From: Gemmatimonadota bacterium
Lineage (GTDB): Bacteria > Gemmatimonadota > Gemmatimonadetes > Gemmatimonadales > GWC2-71-9
Assembly (NCBI GenBank): GCA_003222055.1
Contig: QHUT01000080.1
Coordinates: 1 to 41,638 of the forward strand
DNA: 41,638 nt
Direction: 5' to 3'
Shown: positions 36,156 to 41,638 of the stretch, one piece after another
How the letters are laid out: the number at the start of each line of letters is the position of its first letter
Numbering within the stretch: position 1 is the stretch's first letter
Notes under the pieces: model-generated
The model's input: only the letters and a program-made list of their open reading frames with translations
Databases searched by the model: none
Told to the model about the DNA's origin: nothing
Program-made: the position numbers and the translations under genes

Positions 36156-36734
36156 TCAGGGGCGATGGACCTTCGCCGCCTCGAAGAGCGGGAGGAACTG
36201 CCCGTACCCCTCCGCCTCGAGTCGCTCGAGCGGAATGAACCGCAACGCGGCGGAATTCATGCAGTAGCGCAACCCGGTGGGGGGCGGGCCGTCGTCGAAC
36301 AGGTGCCCGAGGTGCGAGTCAGCGCGCGTCGAGCGGACTTCGGTGCGCACCATGAACAGGGAGCGATCCGTCTTCTGGCGAATGTTGCCGGGCTCGAGCG
36401 GCTTCGTAAAGCTGGGCCAGCCGGTCCCGGAATCGTACTTGTCGAGTGAGCTGAACAGCGGCTCGCCCGACACCACGTCCACGTAGATCCCGGGCTGGTG
36501 GTTGTCCCAGTACTCGTTGTTGAACGCCCGCTCGGTGGCGTCGCGCTGCGTCACCTCGTACTGCAGCGGCGTGAGCGAGCGTCGCAGCTCGCCGTCGGTC
36601 GCTTTCTTGAAGTCCATGGGATTCCATCCTTTCGATCGCGCCTGGGCGGCGGCCGTTTGCGCCTGTGCGGCGGCGGCACTCAGCAGGATCAGCGCGAGCC
36701 ACCCGCGCGCCGCGCCACTCGTCCTTGGCAGCAT
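36156..36734 (-). CDS. msrB: Peptide-methionine (R)-S-oxide reductase MsrB, exported, single cysteine
   Basis: A 192-residue MsrB with an N-terminal signal peptide (about 1-26, '[13 protein letters not shown]'), so it repairs oxidised methionine outside the cytoplasm. Family motifs are 'GTGWPSF' (103-109), '[12 protein letters not shown]' (139-150) and the catalytic '[13 protein letters not shown]' with Cys158. Both zinc-binding CxxC pairs are replaced (Asp86/Ser89 and Ser135/Ala138), and Cys158 is the only cysteine in the whole protein. The sulfenic acid must therefore be reduced by an outside thiol. The ATG at 36734 has GGGGTG upstream. The gene starts 20 bp behind tRNA-Ala and heads a coupled stress cluster. 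Confidence 0.93.
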
Positions 36735-36753
36735 GGTCGTCACCCCCTGAACG

Positions 36754-36826
36754 TGGAGCGGATGGGATTCGAACCCACGACCCCCTGGTTGCAAACCAGG
36801 TGCTCTCCCAGCTGAGCTACCGCCCC
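36754..36826 (-). tRNA. tRNA-Ala (anticodon TGC)
   Basis: A 73-nt cloverleaf on the minus strand. The acceptor stem GGGGCGG pairs with CCGCTCC and includes the G3:U70 wobble pair that identifies tRNA-Ala. The D-arm is AGCTCAGCTGGGAGAGC, the anticodon stem CTGGT/ACCAG holds loop TTTGCAA (anticodon TGC), and the T-arm is GTGGGTTCGAATCCCAT. The discriminator is A and the CCA end is not encoded. It lies directly upstream of msrB on the same strand. Confidence 0.97.
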
Positions 36827-36920: not shown

Positions 36921-36948
36921 CTGTTCTCCCCGGCGGGTCTGTGCGTCT
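36921..36948 (-). repeat. 28-bp dispersed intergenic repeat, copy C (inverted)
   Basis: On the minus strand it reads AGACGCACAGACCCGCCG and onward, with 23 of 28 positions shared with copy B. Farther out, the sequence to 36980 contains a 'TGTGTCTCCGCGT' phrase, which resembles widespread intergenic repeats of high-GC soil bacteria. Confidence 0.55.
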
Positions 36949-36991
36949 AGCCCTTTGCCTTTCCTGTGTCTCCGCGTGGAGATTCCCCGTC

Positions 36992-37792
36992 GTGAGACGC
37001 CTGAGTGCCCTATGCGCGATCGTGGCCGCCTGCCGGCCGGCATCCACCCCGTTTCGCCTCGGCACCACCTACACCGTCCAACAATCCGGCGTCCTCGCCG
37101 TGCTCGAGTCGCTCTGGGCGGGCCCTCGATTCGCGACCGTCGTCGCGCCCTCGGGACAGATCCTGCGTGCCGCAGCGAGCGGCGATCTCGACGTGGTGAT
37201 CACGCACGCGCCGGCGCTGGAGCGGCGCTTGCTGGTCGGGCCCGGCCACGCCCTGCGCCGCTGCCCGTTCGTCGCGAGCCGGTTTGCGATCGTCGGGCCG
37301 GCGGCGGATCCCGCACGCGTGGCCGCCGCCCCTTCGGCCGCCGCGGCATTCCGCCGCATCGCCGCCGTGGGCGGTCCGTTCGTGTCACGCGGCGATTCGT
37401 CCGGAACGCACGTGAAGGAGCTGGCCTTGTGGCAGGCGGCGGGAGTGACACCCCTGTCACCCTGGCGTATCGAGTCGGGGGCCGACCAGGCGGCCACCCT
37501 CCACCTCGCCGACGAGCGCGACGCGTACGCCCTCGCCGATCTGCCCACGTATGCGAGGCTCCGGGGCTTGAGTCTGCGGATCCTGTTCGTGGCAGACACG
37601 GCGCTCACCAACCCGTACACCTTGTACGTGGTGCGCCATCCCAACGCCCCGGCGGACGCGGGCGGGTTCGCGCAGTGGGCGACGCAGACAGGTCGGGCCG
37701 CGATCGCTGAATTGCGTCTCCCTGACAGCACGCCGGCGTTCGCTATGGTGGCAGGGGCGTGCATGACCCCGCGGGCTGCCGCGGCGCCGTGA
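36992..37792 (+). CDS. TupA-like tungstate/molybdate-binding lipoprotein
   Basis: A 266-residue periplasmic binding protein. GTG 36992 gives a lipoprotein signal with lipobox VAAC (Cys14). The body carries the landmarks of the tungstate-binding TupA family: 'LGTTYTVQQSGVL' near the N-terminus, 'SGDLDVVITHAPALERRLL', 'FVSRGDSSGTHVKELALWQAAG' (about 129-150), 'ESGADQAATLHLADERDAYALAD', and 'NPYTLYVV'. The Ser/Thr/Arg of 'SRGDSSGTH' and 'TYTVQQSG' are the oxyanion ligands in this fold. The permease and ATPase genes (tupB, tupC) do not follow it; the next genes run the other way. A relic of a second copy of its 3' end is found at 40453-40590. Confidence 0.88.
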   Translation: MRRLSALCAIVAACRPASTPFRLGTTYTVQQSGVLAVLESLWAGPRFATVVAPSGQILRAAASGDLDVVITHAPALERRLLVGPGHALRRCPFVASRFAIVGPAADPARVAAAPSAAAAFRRIAAVGGPFVSRGDSSGTHVKELALWQAAGVTPLSPWRIESGADQAATLHLADERDAYALADLPTYARLRGLSLRILFVADTALTNPYTLYVVRHPNAPADAGGFAQWATQTGRAAIAELRLPDSTPAFAMVAGACMTPRAAAAP

Positions 37793-37808: not shown

Positions 37809-38210
37809 CTACGGCGCGATCGTGACGGCCCGGCTTCCAGGCGCCACGGCGGCGAACGATGCGTCCGCGACGTCCAGAATCATGGCCGTGTAGCCGCTCG
37901 CCTGGCTCTTGGCGGGCACCGAGAGCCGCAGCAGTGCCCCGTCCGAGAGATTGCCCGTGATGATGGCGCGCCATTGGGTGGCGGACAGGCGTTGCGTGAA
38001 TAGACGATAGCTCGAGCCGGTGGGCGCCAGCACACTGTCGATCCCTGCGCTCGGGTCGGCTCCGACGAGCTGCACCAGGATCGCCCGATCCGTCGATCCC
38101 GCGTTGGCGAGCTGTGCGGAGAGGGTCACCGAAGCGGGGGCGGCGGGCTCACTGCAACCGCCCGCGGCGATCGCCCAGGCCACGCCGAGAGCCGTCAGAT
38201 ATCTGTTCAT
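37809..38210 (-). CDS. Small lipoprotein with one beta-sandwich-like domain, coupled to the M6 peptidase
   Basis: A 133-residue protein with a lipoprotein-type signal (Cys19 in 'AAGGCSEP'). A single beta-rich domain follows ('ASVTLSAQLANAG', 'RAILVQLVGAD', 'LLRLSVPAKSQASGYTAMILDVADASFA', 'SRAVTIAP'). It is homologous to the lipoprotein at 40574-40969: same order of strands, 'ITGNLSDGALLRLSV' against 'VTGTLTNGAVVTIGL'. The ATG at 38210 overlaps the stop of the M6-peptidase gene (ATGA). The strand pattern resembles the jelly-roll of cohesin-like modules, which bind dockerins; this is a hypothesis from the dockerin-like end of its coupled partner. No firm family is recognised. Confidence 0.72.
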   Translation of the reverse strand: MNRYLTALGVAWAIAAGGCSEPAAPASVTLSAQLANAGSTDRAILVQLVGADPSAGIDSVLAPTGSSYRLFTQRLSATQWRAIITGNLSDGALLRLSVPAKSQASGYTAMILDVADASFAAVAPGSRAVTIAP

Positions 38211-40321
38211 GGCCGTGCCCTCGCGGTCGCGACCGGCACGCCTGCCGGCGCCACGTTCCCCGTGCGCCCGAGCCAGCGCAGGAAGTCGCCGATGTCGAAC
38301 GTGTTGTTGCGATTGCCTTGCAGATCGAGGTAGCGTGTCTGGTCGCCATTCGCGAGCGCCGGGCCCTGGAACTCGAGACTCAGGACCTGCTGCAGCGTGA
38401 GGGACGGCTCCACGACGTGGAGGGTCATCCCCCGCCCCGCGGTCTGCGTCTGGTCGGTCACGCTGACCTGGAACGTGTAGGTGCCCGTGTCGGTCGGCCA
38501 CCCGCTCAACACGCCGCCCTGCGACAACCCCACCCCCGGAGGCGGCGTCCCCGACACGACGCTCCACCGGTAGTTGCCGCCACCACACGTCGCTCTCAGA
38601 ACCGTGTTATAGGAGTATCCCCACTGGCCACCGGGGAGCTGCGGCACCGTGGTCACGGCCAGGGGCTGCACACCCGTGTTCAACACGAAGCGCACCGCTC
38701 CATTGGGCACGACCTGGCTGATCGTGTCCAGGCTGAAGCCCGGGCAGCCGGTCGCGTTGAGGCCGTCGCTCGGCAGCGTGGCGATCGACAGCGTCGCGTT
38801 TCCGGTGGTACCGGGATAGAGGTCGCCCGCATCGCCACGATCCGAGCAGCCGACGACCGGAGCCCCCGGATAGCAACGACGCGCGGGGTCCGCGTCGAGG
38901 TTGCCGAATCCGTCTGCCTGGATGGACTCGAGGCCGTGAATCGGGCCCACGTTCACATGATTGAAGTCGCGGTTCGGGCCCGGTGTGGTCACCCCGTCGG
39001 CAATTTGCGCCGAATCCACATGCCAGACGATGAGGCCCCCACCGCACGACGCGGGTGGATTCGCGGAGGCATACCACGCCTGGCAGTGGTAGCGAATCAT
39101 CGCGCTGTCCGACAACACACGCTGACGGTTTTCCAGCAGGAAGTACTCGCCGCGCGGGTTCGATCCGGTGACGGGGACGAACAACGCGGTGTCCACGGTT
39201 GCTTGCGCCGGGCCGAACGTGTACGCCCCGCTGGCGAGCGGTGCGACGACCACCCAGCCCAGCTCGTTGAGCGACCACACGTCCATGCGCGAGGGACTGA
39301 ACGGGGACGTGTAGTTCCCACTCCCCATCAAGCTGTATTCGCCCACGCCCTCGCTCGACTCGTCGGTGTCGTACAGATCGGGGAGCCCGAATCCGTGTCC
39401 GGTCTCGTGAGCCACCGTGCCGATCGGCATGATCGTGGTGGTGTCGCACCCGCTCGCACCGCCCACGCCGCTCTCCAGGATGTAGTCGGCCACCTGCACG
39501 TTCACCGTCCGGCCGTTCACCACGGTGGTCGAATGCGTGCGATACGGCCCCAGGAAGAAGCGGTGTGCCCACAGGTGATTGTTGCCGCGCGGCCCACACG
39601 CTCCGTCGAGCGCCGGCTGCATGAACGCCACCAGATCCACGAAGCCGTCGCCATCGCTGTCGTATTGCGTCCAGTCGATCTGGCCGTCGAGCTTGCGCAG
39701 CGCCTCGGTGAGCGCGCTCTGCATGCGTGCGACCGCATTGGGTGAGAACAGGCCGTTGCAGTCCGTCGAGCCCGTATACGGGTTTCCGGTGCAGGTGCCG
39801 GGAACGCCGGTGTAGGTCACTTCATTGGAGTCGAGCGCGGCGTAGCCGTACGTCTGCCCCTGCACGTTCAGCAACCCGTTCGACAGCTCGGCGTAATACG
39901 ACGCGTACGTGTAGGGCCGGCCGGCGGACGCGCCGGTGGGTGTCGGCGCGAACAGCACGTCGTCGAACTGGCTGGTGGGACGGATCTGGCTCGCCGGTGT
40001 GTTCTTGAACTTGAACAGGATGGCCGGCACGCGCAGCACGCCGGAGACGGCGGGCCCGGCCGCGAGCGGCGCGCCCTGCGACCGCGGGGCGCGGCCCCCG
40101 GTCACGAGCGGTGCGTTCAGCGCCGGGAAATTCCGCTGCCGCAACAGTTGCTGGCGGGCGCTCCGCACGGCGCGCACCTGTTTGCGCCACACCCCGTCCT
40201 TGCGGAAATCGAAGCCGCTAATCTCGCGGCGCACACGCGGCGGGCCCTGCTGCGATCGGCCGGCGCCCGGCAGGCAGACGACGGCCACCACGGTCAGCAA
40301 CAGGGTGTGTCGAGCCTTCAC
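38207..40321 (-). CDS. Secreted M6-family metallopeptidase with Ig-like and dockerin-like C-terminal modules
   Basis: A 704-residue secreted protein: signal peptide (about 1-23), then the M6 (immune inhibitor A-like) catalytic region. The zinc site is 'HETGHGFGLPDLYD' (His305, Glu306, His309, third ligand Asp315 or 318). An EF-hand-like 'DSDGDGFVD' lies at 221-229. A putative-Ig domain covers about 550-637 ('GNYRWSVVSGTPPPGVGLS', 'TYTFQVSVTD'). The end (about 640-688) has the dockerin-like motif 'LDLQGNRNNTFDIGDFLRWL'. Start GTG 40321 has GGAG 7-8 nt upstream. Translation is coupled to a small lipoprotein. The last module recurs in the neighbouring protein at 40966, and likely attaches the enzyme to a partner. 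Confidence 0.9.
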   Translation of the reverse strand: MKARHTLLLTVVAVVCLPGAGRSQQGPPRVRREISGFDFRKDGVWRKQVRAVRSARQQLLRQRNFPALNAPLVTGGRAPRSQGAPLAAGPAVSGVLRVPAILFKFKNTPASQIRPTSQFDDVLFAPTPTGASAGRPYTYASYYAELSNGLLNVQGQTYGYAALDSNEVTYTGVPGTCTGNPYTGSTDCNGLFSPNAVARMQSALTEALRKLDGQIDWTQYDSDGDGFVDLVAFMQPALDGACGPRGNNHLWAHRFFLGPYRTHSTTVVNGRTVNVQVADYILESGVGGASGCDTTTIMPIGTVAHETGHGFGLPDLYDTDESSEGVGEYSLMGSGNYTSPFSPSRMDVWSLNELGWVVVAPLASGAYTFGPAQATVDTALFVPVTGSNPRGEYFLLENRQRVLSDSAMIRYHCQAWYASANPPASCGGGLIVWHVDSAQIADGVTTPGPNRDFNHVNVGPIHGLESIQADGFGNLDADPARRCYPGAPVVGCSDRGDAGDLYPGTTGNATLSIATLPSDGLNATGCPGFSLDTISQVVPNGAVRFVLNTGVQPLAVTTVPQLPGGQWGYSYNTVLRATCGGGNYRWSVVSGTPPPGVGLSQGGVLSGWPTDTGTYTFQVSVTDQTQTAGRGMTLHVVEPSLTLQQVLSLEFQGPALANGDQTRYLDLQGNRNNTFDIGDFLRWLGRTGNVAPAGVPVATARARP

Positions 40322-40452
40322 GCGGAACTCCCGGTCCTCGAGGGATGAGCGCGACGTTCCAATCTAAGGCGCGGCCGAGGGAGCGGCCGTGGCATGCCTC
40401 ACGCCCCGCCTCGCGAGTACTACACCGAGCAGCATGAATCCGATCACGCCCG

Positions 40453-40590
40453 GCGCCGCATCCCGACGCGCGGGCCTTCGCGACGTGGGCGACACAGGGG
40501 CGCGAGGCGGTGCTCGCGCTCCGGCTGCCGGACGGTACGCCGGCGTTCGTGCCGCGGCCAGGCGACTGCGAAGCTACTGCGAAATCGTGA
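40453..40590 (+). pseudogene. Relic of the 3' end of a tupA-like gene
   Basis: The plus frame encodes 'HPDARAFATWATQGREAVLALRLPDGTPAFV' and ends at a TGA. The intact TupA-like protein (36992-37792) ends 'HPNAPADAGGFAQWATQTG...AIAELRLPDSTPAFA', so this is its last 45 codons. No start codon or upstream body is present: an in-frame TGA lies about 20 bp before the homology. It occupies the gene-poor stretch 40322-40573 and overlaps the convergent lipoprotein tail by 17 nt. In the intact copy the gap to the equivalent lipoprotein is 16 bp. Confidence 0.75.
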
Positions 40591-40969
40591 GGGAGTACCC
40601 GTTGAGCGGGCGCAGTTGGAAGTCCGACCCGGCCACGGCCTCGATGGTTGCGGCGTATTGGCTCAGCTTCCGGGTGTCGGCGAGGCCGATCGTCACCACC
40701 GCGCCGTTCGTCAGCGTCCCGGTGACGGCCATCCGGGTCACCATGGTCAGGGGCTGGGAGAAGACCCGTAGCCCCGGCGCGGCCGTAATGCTCGTGGGCG
40801 CCAGCGGCCCTGTGAACCTGAACTGAATCGCGCCGTCCGAGCCGGCCTTGGGCGTCGTCAGCGAAACGGTGAGCACTCCCGCCACCGGACCCGTGCCCGC
40901 GTCGCTGCTGCAGCTCCCGGCGCCTCCCAGTGCCAGCGTGACCAGCAGCCATCGCCCGAGCCGCTTCAT
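40574..40969 (-). CDS. Small lipoprotein, paralog of 37809-38210
   Basis: A 131-residue protein. Signal with lipid Cys20 ('GGAGSCSSD'), then one beta-rich domain ('LTVSLTTPKAG', 'GAIQFRFTGP', 'MAVTGTLTNGAVVTIGLADTRKLSQYAATIEAVAG', 'GYSLTISQ'). It shares strand order and several motifs with the lipoprotein at 37809. Its ATG overlaps the stop of the upstream secreted protein by 4 nt (ATGA), as in the first unit. Proposed role: surface or periplasmic anchor/partner for that protein, by analogy with cohesin-dockerin pairs. I recognise no named family. Confidence 0.7.
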   Translation of the reverse strand: MKRLGRWLLVTLALGGAGSCSSDAGTGPVAGVLTVSLTTPKAGSDGAIQFRFTGPLAPTSITAAPGLRVFSQPLTMVTRMAVTGTLTNGAVVTIGLADTRKLSQYAATIEAVAGSDFQLRPLNGYSLTISQ

Positions 40970-41638
40970 CGAGACGCTCCTTTCCGCTTAGCCGCGCTCA
41001 CGCGCGCCCGTTGCTGGGCCGTGAGCGGCGCCCCGGTCGCCTGCACCCAGGCGAGAAAATCGCCCAGATCGAACTCGCCGCTGTTGTTCCCCAGCTGGTC
41101 GAGGTCTGTGAGCTGCGCCGCTGTGAGCGCGCTCGACCCGTTGAGCAGCTGGGAGACCACGTCCACCGTGTTGAAGGTCTCGAGGAACACCGCCCGCACG
41201 GAGTACGGCCGACCCATCGGCAGCGTGACGCTCAAGTTCTTGGTGACGGTATCGCCCGCCCAGCCTTGGAACGTGCGCACGACGCTCGTGTCGGTGGCCA
41301 TGAGGGTCACCGGCGTCCCGTCCGTGACGAACGTGTCGCTCGGCACCGAGCCCGAAATCGTGCCGCCGCTGGTGGCGGTATAGTGGACCTGGTGCGACCG
41401 GGCCAGCGTCACGGTGAGGGTTTCCGGGGTGGCGGTCGGCGTGTAGCTGAAGCTGCGCGGCTGCCCGCCGGACCAGGAGACGAAGACTTGCCGGGTGCGA
41501 CCGCCCACCGTCAACTGCGTATCCGCGACGCTCACGCTGTGCACCGTGCCGGGCGTGAGAACATCCCGGAACAGGTGATATGTGACGGCGTCGAACTGGA
41601 TCACCGCGGCCGTGTCCGTCGCGCGCACCACCCAGACA
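40966..41638 (-). CDS. Secreted protein with repeat domain and dockerin-like C-terminus (5' end beyond window)
   Basis: The frame is open to the window edge, so only the last 224 residues are seen. They contain an InlB-type bacterial repeat ('TLARSHQVHYTATSGGTISGS', 'FQGWAGDTVTKNLSVTLPM', 'SVRAVF'), followed by the same C-terminal module as the M6 peptidase: 'LDQLGNNSGEFDLGDFLAWV' with a preceding helix. A basic tail follows. The catalytic part, if any, lies outside. The gene is coupled to the lipoprotein at 40574. A signal peptide cannot be checked. Confidence 0.8.
   Translation of the reverse strand, partial: VWVVRATDTAAVIQFDAVTYHLFRDVLTPGTVHSVSVADTQLTVGGRTRQVFVSWSGGQPRSFSYTPTATPETLTVTLARSHQVHYTATSGGTISGSVPSDTFVTDGTPVTLMATDTSVVRTFQGWAGDTVTKNLSVTLPMGRPYSVRAVFLETFNTVDVVSQLLNGSSALTAAQLTDLDQLGNNSGEFDLGDFLAWVQATGAPLTAQQRARVSAAKRKGASR

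What the first reader, a model, noticed from the sequence alone, without database searches (positions are those of the whole stretch)
37809..41638. Two coupled 'dockerin-like secreted protein + small lipoprotein' units: candidate anchoring system
Seen: an M6 peptidase (38207-40321) and an unrelated secreted protein (40966 onward) end in the same module, with core pattern LD..GN.....FD.GDFL.W and a helix before it. Each gene overlaps the next by ATGA, and in both cases the next gene encodes a small lipoprotein with one beta-rich domain; the two lipoproteins are homologous. Known: in cohesin-dockerin systems a short Ca-binding C-terminal module on enzymes binds a beta-sandwich module on an anchor. 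Inference: each lipoprotein binds the C-terminal module of its coupled partner and holds the secreted protein on the cell surface. The motif differs from classical dockerin (one residue shorter loop, Asn/Gln in place of some Asp), so it may be a separate, undescribed pairing.
Basis: partly seen in the sequence, partly recalled or inferred. Interest (0 to 1): 0.75.

Follow-up and report, generated by a model that had tools for sequence, protein, structure and literature searches.

The report
Lipoprotein–peptidase docking pair in Gemmatimonadota
In a group of soil and sponge bacteria, secreted peptidases and adhesin-like proteins carry a short C-terminal plug, and the gene that almost always sits next to theirs encodes a small lipid-anchored socket predicted to grip that plug, so the cell appears to tether each exported protein with its own anchor, by a design like the cohesin–dockerin couplings of cellulosomes but not described before.

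Summary
Two genes overlapping by ATGA with a small lipoprotein gene end in the same module (L-D-x-x-G-N-x-[ND]-x-x-[FY]-D-x-G-D-F-x-x-W). One correction: the second 'unrelated' protein is the tail of another M6 peptidase cut by the contig end (82% identical over 223 aa to a full-length orthologue). Across 298 sampled genomes of the phylum, 120 have both families, 3 only the lipoprotein, 12 only the module, 163 neither. Of 115 distinct lipoprotein loci, 97 are next to a module gene, 1 lies 4.6 kb away, 16 are fused to the module in one frame, and 1 is at a contig end. The 'module only' genomes inspected also have a diverged lipoprotein next door. AlphaFold2 folds module (three helices) and lipoprotein (β-sandwich) confidently, and the pTM values (0.79; 0.73 for a natural fusion) fit a docked arrangement. 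Foldseek's best matches to the sandwich are cohesins. Neither part matches Pfam cohesin or dockerin, and the module has one calcium-type loop, not two. Best reading: a dedicated one-to-one cohesin–dockerin-like anchoring pair of the Gemmatimonadota, new as a family. Binding, calcium and localisation are untested.

The parts
38207..40321 (-). M6 (immune inhibitor A-like) peptidase, 704 aa, signal peptide, He_PIG-type Ig domain, C-terminal module
38210..38404 (-). C-terminal dockerin-like module of the M6 peptidase (three helices around one D-x-x-G-N-x-N-x-x-F-D-x-G-D loop)
   Evidence: sequence, family alignment A2, conservation; fold inferred from homologue models
38207..38210 (-). ATGA stop/start overlap, M6 gene with lipoprotein gene 1
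37809..38210 (-). lipoprotein 1, 133 aa (MNRYLTALGVAWAIAAGGC|SEP...), cohesin-like sandwich
   Evidence: fold inferred from homologue models
40966..41638 (-). C-terminal 223 aa of a second M6 peptidase, truncated by the contig end; carries an InlB-type domain (PF18998) and the module
40969..41178 (-). C-terminal dockerin-like module of the second M6 peptidase
40966..40969 (-). ATGA stop/start overlap, second M6 gene with lipoprotein gene 2
40574..40969 (-). lipoprotein 2, 131 aa (MKRLGRWLLVTLALGGAGSC|SSD...), homologue of lipoprotein 1

Best explanation
Each unit is a dedicated plug-and-socket pair. The secreted protein (usually an M6 peptidase) ends in a roughly 50-residue three-helix module with one EF-hand-like, probably calcium-filled loop. 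The translationally coupled next gene makes a small lipoprotein whose mature part is a cohesin-like beta-sandwich. The sandwich binds the module and, through its N-terminal lipid, tethers the exported protein to the envelope. The pairing is one-to-one rather than scaffold-based, and in some families the two halves are fused into one polypeptide. Shown: gene linkage, conservation, natural fusions, predicted folds and predicted docking. Inferred: actual binding, calcium, membrane tethering and the membrane face.
For: Linkage: 114 of 115 distinct lipoprotein loci have a module on the same contig and strand (88 module gene then lipoprotein, 10 the reverse order, 16 fused; the exception ends at a contig edge). 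89 of the 98 two-gene loci have a start codon overlapping the previous stop by 4 nt. Genome co-occurrence is 120 both / 3 / 12 / 163 neither, Fisher p about 1e-64; the 'module-only' genomes inspected have a diverged lipoprotein adjacent or end at a contig edge, and the two 'lipoprotein-only' ones inspected are at contig ends. The constant partner is the module, not the host protein: hosts are M6 peptidases, an M11/M12-like metallopeptidase, a sortilin/BNR propeller, and giant Calx-beta/fn3/cadherin proteins. Natural fusions occur in both orders. Structure: AlphaFold2 on an in-frame module-lipoprotein locus gives pLDDT about 97 in both domains and pTM 0.79 with about 40 disordered linker residues; a natural fusion gives pTM 0.73 with 67 low-confidence residues. 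My estimate for undocked domains is about 0.55 and 0.47. Foldseek: best hits 2xdh (E=3.5e-3, probability 1.00) and 2jh2, then other cohesins and cohesin-dockerin complexes, which make up most of the top ten; 2xdh is again first for the second model. Lipid anchor: Cys at the expected place in 110 of 113.
Against: No binding data. No PAE or coordinates were available, so the interface itself was not seen; docking rests on pTM. Foldseek E-values are modest (none below 1e-3). Sequence profiles do not link the parts to cohesin or dockerin. In the fused proteins tethering would need either the internal hydrophobic segment or cleavage at the internal Cys. One genome (L198) has a lipoprotein-module fusion without a host enzyme, which anchoring does not explain.
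Confidence: 0.68

Rival explanations
1. The lipoprotein is a dedicated export or folding chaperone: it binds the module transiently in the periplasm to help the large secreted protein fold or leave the cell, and is not a lasting anchor.
For: Small, lipid-anchored, co-translated one-to-one with its client; module at the very C-terminus. The same linkage and docking evidence applies.
Against: Natural fusions keep the two parts in one chain for good unless cleaved; the fold is a cohesin-type binding sandwich, a class known for very stable complexes (established knowledge).
Confidence: 0.15
2. The lipoprotein is an inhibitor that protects the cell from its own M6 peptidase.
For: Most hosts are M6 or related metallopeptidases and the genes are coupled.
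Against: The same pair occurs on non-peptidases such as a sortilin/BNR propeller and Calx-beta/fn3/cadherin giants; the conserved partner feature is the module, not the catalytic domain.
Confidence: 0.05
3. Module and lipoprotein do not bind each other; they form a conserved operon for regulatory or co-sorting reasons, for example a C-terminal sorting signal plus an unrelated envelope lipoprotein.
For: No direct binding data; the fused proteins carry a short hydrophobic patch and an Arg-rich stretch after the module that resembles a sorting tail.
Against: High pTM in two constructs, gene fusions in both orders, parallel divergence of module and lipoprotein between the two window units (34% and 33% identity against 69% for the catalytic regions).
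Confidence: 0.1

Closest known systems
Cohesin-dockerin pairs of cellulosomes (PF00963, PF00404)
   Same: Short C-terminal helical Ca-loop module on secreted enzymes; beta-sandwich partner on an anchoring protein; best structural matches of the lipoprotein are cohesins.
   Different: Dockerins have two F-hand repeats with 12-residue loops; this module has one loop of 14 residues. The partner is a single-domain lipoprotein, one per enzyme, in the same operon, not a multi-cohesin scaffoldin. No Pfam match.
Non-cellulosomal cohesins and dockerins (Archaeoglobus fulgidus 2xdh; ANME and syntrophic sulfate reducers, PMC9012536, PMC10553843)
   Same: Outside cellulose degradation; 2xdh is the top Foldseek hit; adjacent cohesin/dockerin domains are reported in syntrophic sulfate reducers.
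   Different: Those are recognised by existing domain models; these are not. No lipoprotein-coupled one-to-one operon was found described in the papers searched.
C-terminal sorting systems (GlyGly-CTERM/rhombosortase, PEP-CTERM/exosortase; from my own knowledge)
   Same: C-terminal module that fixes the fate of secreted proteins.
   Different: The window module lacks a transmembrane helix and sortase motif; its partner is a binding sandwich next door, not a protease.

Membership tests
Cohesin (PF00963) | Sequence match to the family profile | tested here: not met
   No match at the lipoprotein loci, although the profile does match classical cohesins elsewhere in one of the same genomes (G027:C1:459-460 kb)
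Cohesin (PF00963) | Cohesin beta-sandwich fold | tested here: met
   Foldseek top hits are cohesins (probability 1.00, TM-score 0.56 by target length for 2xdh), but E-values are only 1e-3 to 1e-2
Cohesin (PF00963) | Nine-stranded jelly roll | tested here: inconclusive
   Seven strands assigned in both models; a shorter version of the sandwich
Cohesin (PF00963) | Binds a dockerin | not testable with these tools
   Only predicted docking through pTM
Dockerin (PF00404) | Sequence match to the family profile | tested here: not met
   profile-profile p=0.018, probability 2.6%
Dockerin (PF00404) | Two tandem F-hand calcium repeats with 12-residue loops | tested here: not met
   One loop only, 14 residues from first to last Asp; helix order matches half a dockerin
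Dockerin (PF00404) | Calcium binding | not testable with these tools
   Loop positions D, N, N/D, D/N, D are conserved at 95-100%
Peptidase M6 (PF05547/TIGR03296), host protein | Family profile above cut-off and HExxH-type zinc motif | tested here: met
   TIGR03296 122 bits against a 110.8 cut-off; HETGHGFGLPD in the sequence
Bacterial lipoprotein (partner) | Signal peptide ending in a lipobox Cys | tested here: met
   Cys invariant in 29 of 29 aligned and present in 110 of 113; by sequence inspection, no dedicated predictor

The most novel reading that the evidence does not exclude
A class-wide, independently reduced plug-and-socket anchoring system in which, in some families, host protein, plug and lipidated socket are made as one polyprotein with an internal lipoprotein signal. 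Signal peptidase II would cut at the internal Cys, releasing the socket, which then re-binds the plug. Pairs within one genome would be insulated from each other by parallel divergence.
Probability: 0.25. Interest if true: 0.8.

Novelty: new variant of a known kind. Interest (0 to 1): 0.66.

Why it matters
It would give the Gemmatimonadota, abundant but little-studied bacteria, a defined way to hold exported peptidases and adhesin-like proteins at the envelope, and would extend cohesin–dockerin logic to a minimal one-plug, one-socket, one-operon form. It assigns a testable function to two large families without any profile-library match, and offers many naturally diverged pairs, sometimes several per genome, as candidate orthogonal docking parts.

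Tried and rejected
Sequence routes to known families: Pfam, NCBIfam and PDB-sequence searches of single proteins and profiles gave nothing; profile-profile comparison with dockerins and cohesins was not significant. 'Basic C-terminal tail' as a sorting signal: rejected for the two-gene loci, because the terminal Arg/Lys codons coincide with the Shine-Dalgarno-like stretch before the overlapping ATG. Unpaired modules: the apparent cases that were followed had a diverged lipoprotein next door or lay at contig ends, apart from a few where lipoprotein and module gene are 2-5 kb apart. Spread outside the phylum: not testable; no plasmid hit for the lipoprotein. Direct modelling of the window's own pair: not possible, since the two genes are out of frame; an in-frame locus (L155, TAG read as Gln) and a natural fusion (L121) were used instead.

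Full report
What is there. The window is the end of contig C143 of a Gemmatimonadota genome (G000:C143:1-41638; contig length 41638; the related records are titled Gemmatimonadetes). On the minus strand lie two tandem units. Unit 1 is an M6 peptidase (38207-40321) followed by a lipoprotein gene (37809-38210). Unit 2 is the 3' end of a gene cut by the contig end (40966-41638) followed by a second lipoprotein gene (40574-40969). Stop and start overlap as ATGA in both. The M6 assignment is by TIGR03296 (E=4e-35) and PF05547. The two lipoproteins are homologous (33% identity).

The second host is not unrelated. Its 223-aa remnant is 82% identical, over its full length, to the C-terminus of a 790-aa M6 peptidase of a sister genome, itself 69% identical to the window's M6 over the catalytic region. 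The window therefore holds a tandem pair of M6-lipoprotein units. Between the units the module cores (34%) and mature lipoproteins (33%) have diverged much more than the catalytic regions (69%). This parallel divergence fits diversified pair specificity, though relaxed constraint could also give it.

Linkage. A search of 61 relatives with lipoprotein 2 found it in 30 genomes, and nearly every hit had a module-bearing gene directly upstream with the same 4-base overlap. Profiles of both families were run over the same 298 genomes of the phylum: 120 have both, 3 only the lipoprotein, 12 only the module, 163 neither. I collected 115 non-redundant lipoprotein loci: 88 module gene then lipoprotein, 10 lipoprotein then module gene, 16 with both in one reading frame, and 1 at a contig end. 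In one of the ten (L161, and similarly L177) the two genes are 2-5 kb apart. In 89 of the 98 two-gene loci a start codon sits 4 nt inside the previous stop; any TGA stop preceded by A, G or T would offer one, so the weight lies in the constant frame relation, the conserved N-terminus and the Shine-Dalgarno-like stretch in front of it. The module-only genomes that were fetched have a diverged lipoprotein next door or end at a contig edge, and the two lipoprotein-only genomes fetched are at contig ends. Host proteins vary: M6 peptidases with different accessory domains, an M11/M12-like metallopeptidase, a sortilin/BNR propeller, and giant Calx-beta/fn3/cadherin proteins. The module, not the host, is what travels with the lipoprotein.

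Fusions. In two families (f5, f7) module and sandwich share one frame. Between them lie, in most, a short hydrophobic patch, an Arg-rich stretch, and a hydrophobic segment ending in Cys, which looks like an internal lipoprotein signal. In one genome a 215-aa lipoprotein carries the sandwich and then the module, with no host enzyme (L198). Fusion of two proteins that are otherwise separate neighbours is classical evidence for physical association.

Structure. At locus L155 module and lipoprotein genes lie in the same frame, separated by a TAG and 9 nt, so reading TAG as Gln gives one chain. With 132 aligned rows (checked) AlphaFold2 gave mean pLDDT 86.7, about 97 within both domains, pTM 0.79, helices 8-15, 23-32, 41-51, and seven strands from residue 103. 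About 40 of 204 residues are disordered linker, so 0.79 is near the maximum for a docked pair; if the two domains floated freely I estimate about 0.55. The natural fusion L121 gave pTM 0.73 with 67 of 246 residues of low confidence, estimated 0.47 if undocked. Neither coordinates nor PAE were available, both alignments included natural fusions, and no non-cognate control was run, so this is support rather than proof. Foldseek placed cohesins first: 2xdh, 2jh2, 8ajy, and further 2zf9, 7uvg, 2w1n, 9gvb, 2vo8, and again 2xdh for the second model, with modest E-values (best 3.5e-3).

The module. In 113 copies the loop residues D-x-x-G-N-x-[ND]-x-x-[FY]-[DN]-x-G-D are nearly invariant. The helix order matches the second half of a dockerin preceded by one helix. 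Profile comparison with dockerins places it in that register, with a two-residue insertion and without significance. So it works like half a dockerin, but is not a PF00404 member.

Reading. The most likely mechanism is a one-to-one anchoring pair: the lipidated sandwich grips the C-terminal module and keeps the secreted protein at the envelope. The steps shown are linkage, conservation, fusion, and predicted folds and docking. Binding, calcium and anchoring are inferred. Which membrane and which face is unknown; the residue after Cys is mostly Gly or Ser. Chaperoning and inhibition are rivals; inhibition is weakened by non-peptidase hosts.

Novelty. No paper found links Gemmatimonadota to such pairs. 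The library lacks most subscription papers, including the key review of non-cellulosomal cohesins and dockerins. Classical cohesins and dockerins do occur separately in one of these genomes (G027), so the new pair is distinct from them. I file it as a new variant of a known kind.

Noticed in passing
L181/L187, G027:C1:448-460 kb: A classical cluster with three PF00963 cohesins and several PF00404 dockerins in a Gemmatimonadota genome that also has the new pairs.
   Followed up: partly
L198:2974-3621: A 215-aa lipoprotein with the cohesin-like domain followed by the module and no host enzyme, next to a large gene that looks like a TonB-dependent receptor; not explained by anchoring.
   Followed up: partly
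L111-L117, L120-L123, L173: Fused proteins carry a cysteine pair after the module (RCxxGEAxCG), a hydrophobic patch, an Arg-rich stretch and an internal lipobox-like Cys: possible polyprotein cut by signal peptidase II.
   Followed up: partly
L161, L177: In genus g45 the lipoprotein and a large module protein lie 2-5 kb apart on the same strand, unlike the usual overlap.
   Followed up: partly
window 36941-37792 (+): PBP-like substrate-binding protein (PF12849) convergent with lipoprotein 1; a similar gene lies beside the lipoprotein in L005, L006, L009, L031, L032.
   Followed up: no
window 36753-36826 (-): tRNA-Ala (TGC) gene just upstream of a secreted MsrB-like (SelR) gene at 36159-36740.
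   Followed up: no
L032: Module gene appears frameshifted: the conserved loop is split over two frames next to an intact lipoprotein.
   Followed up: no
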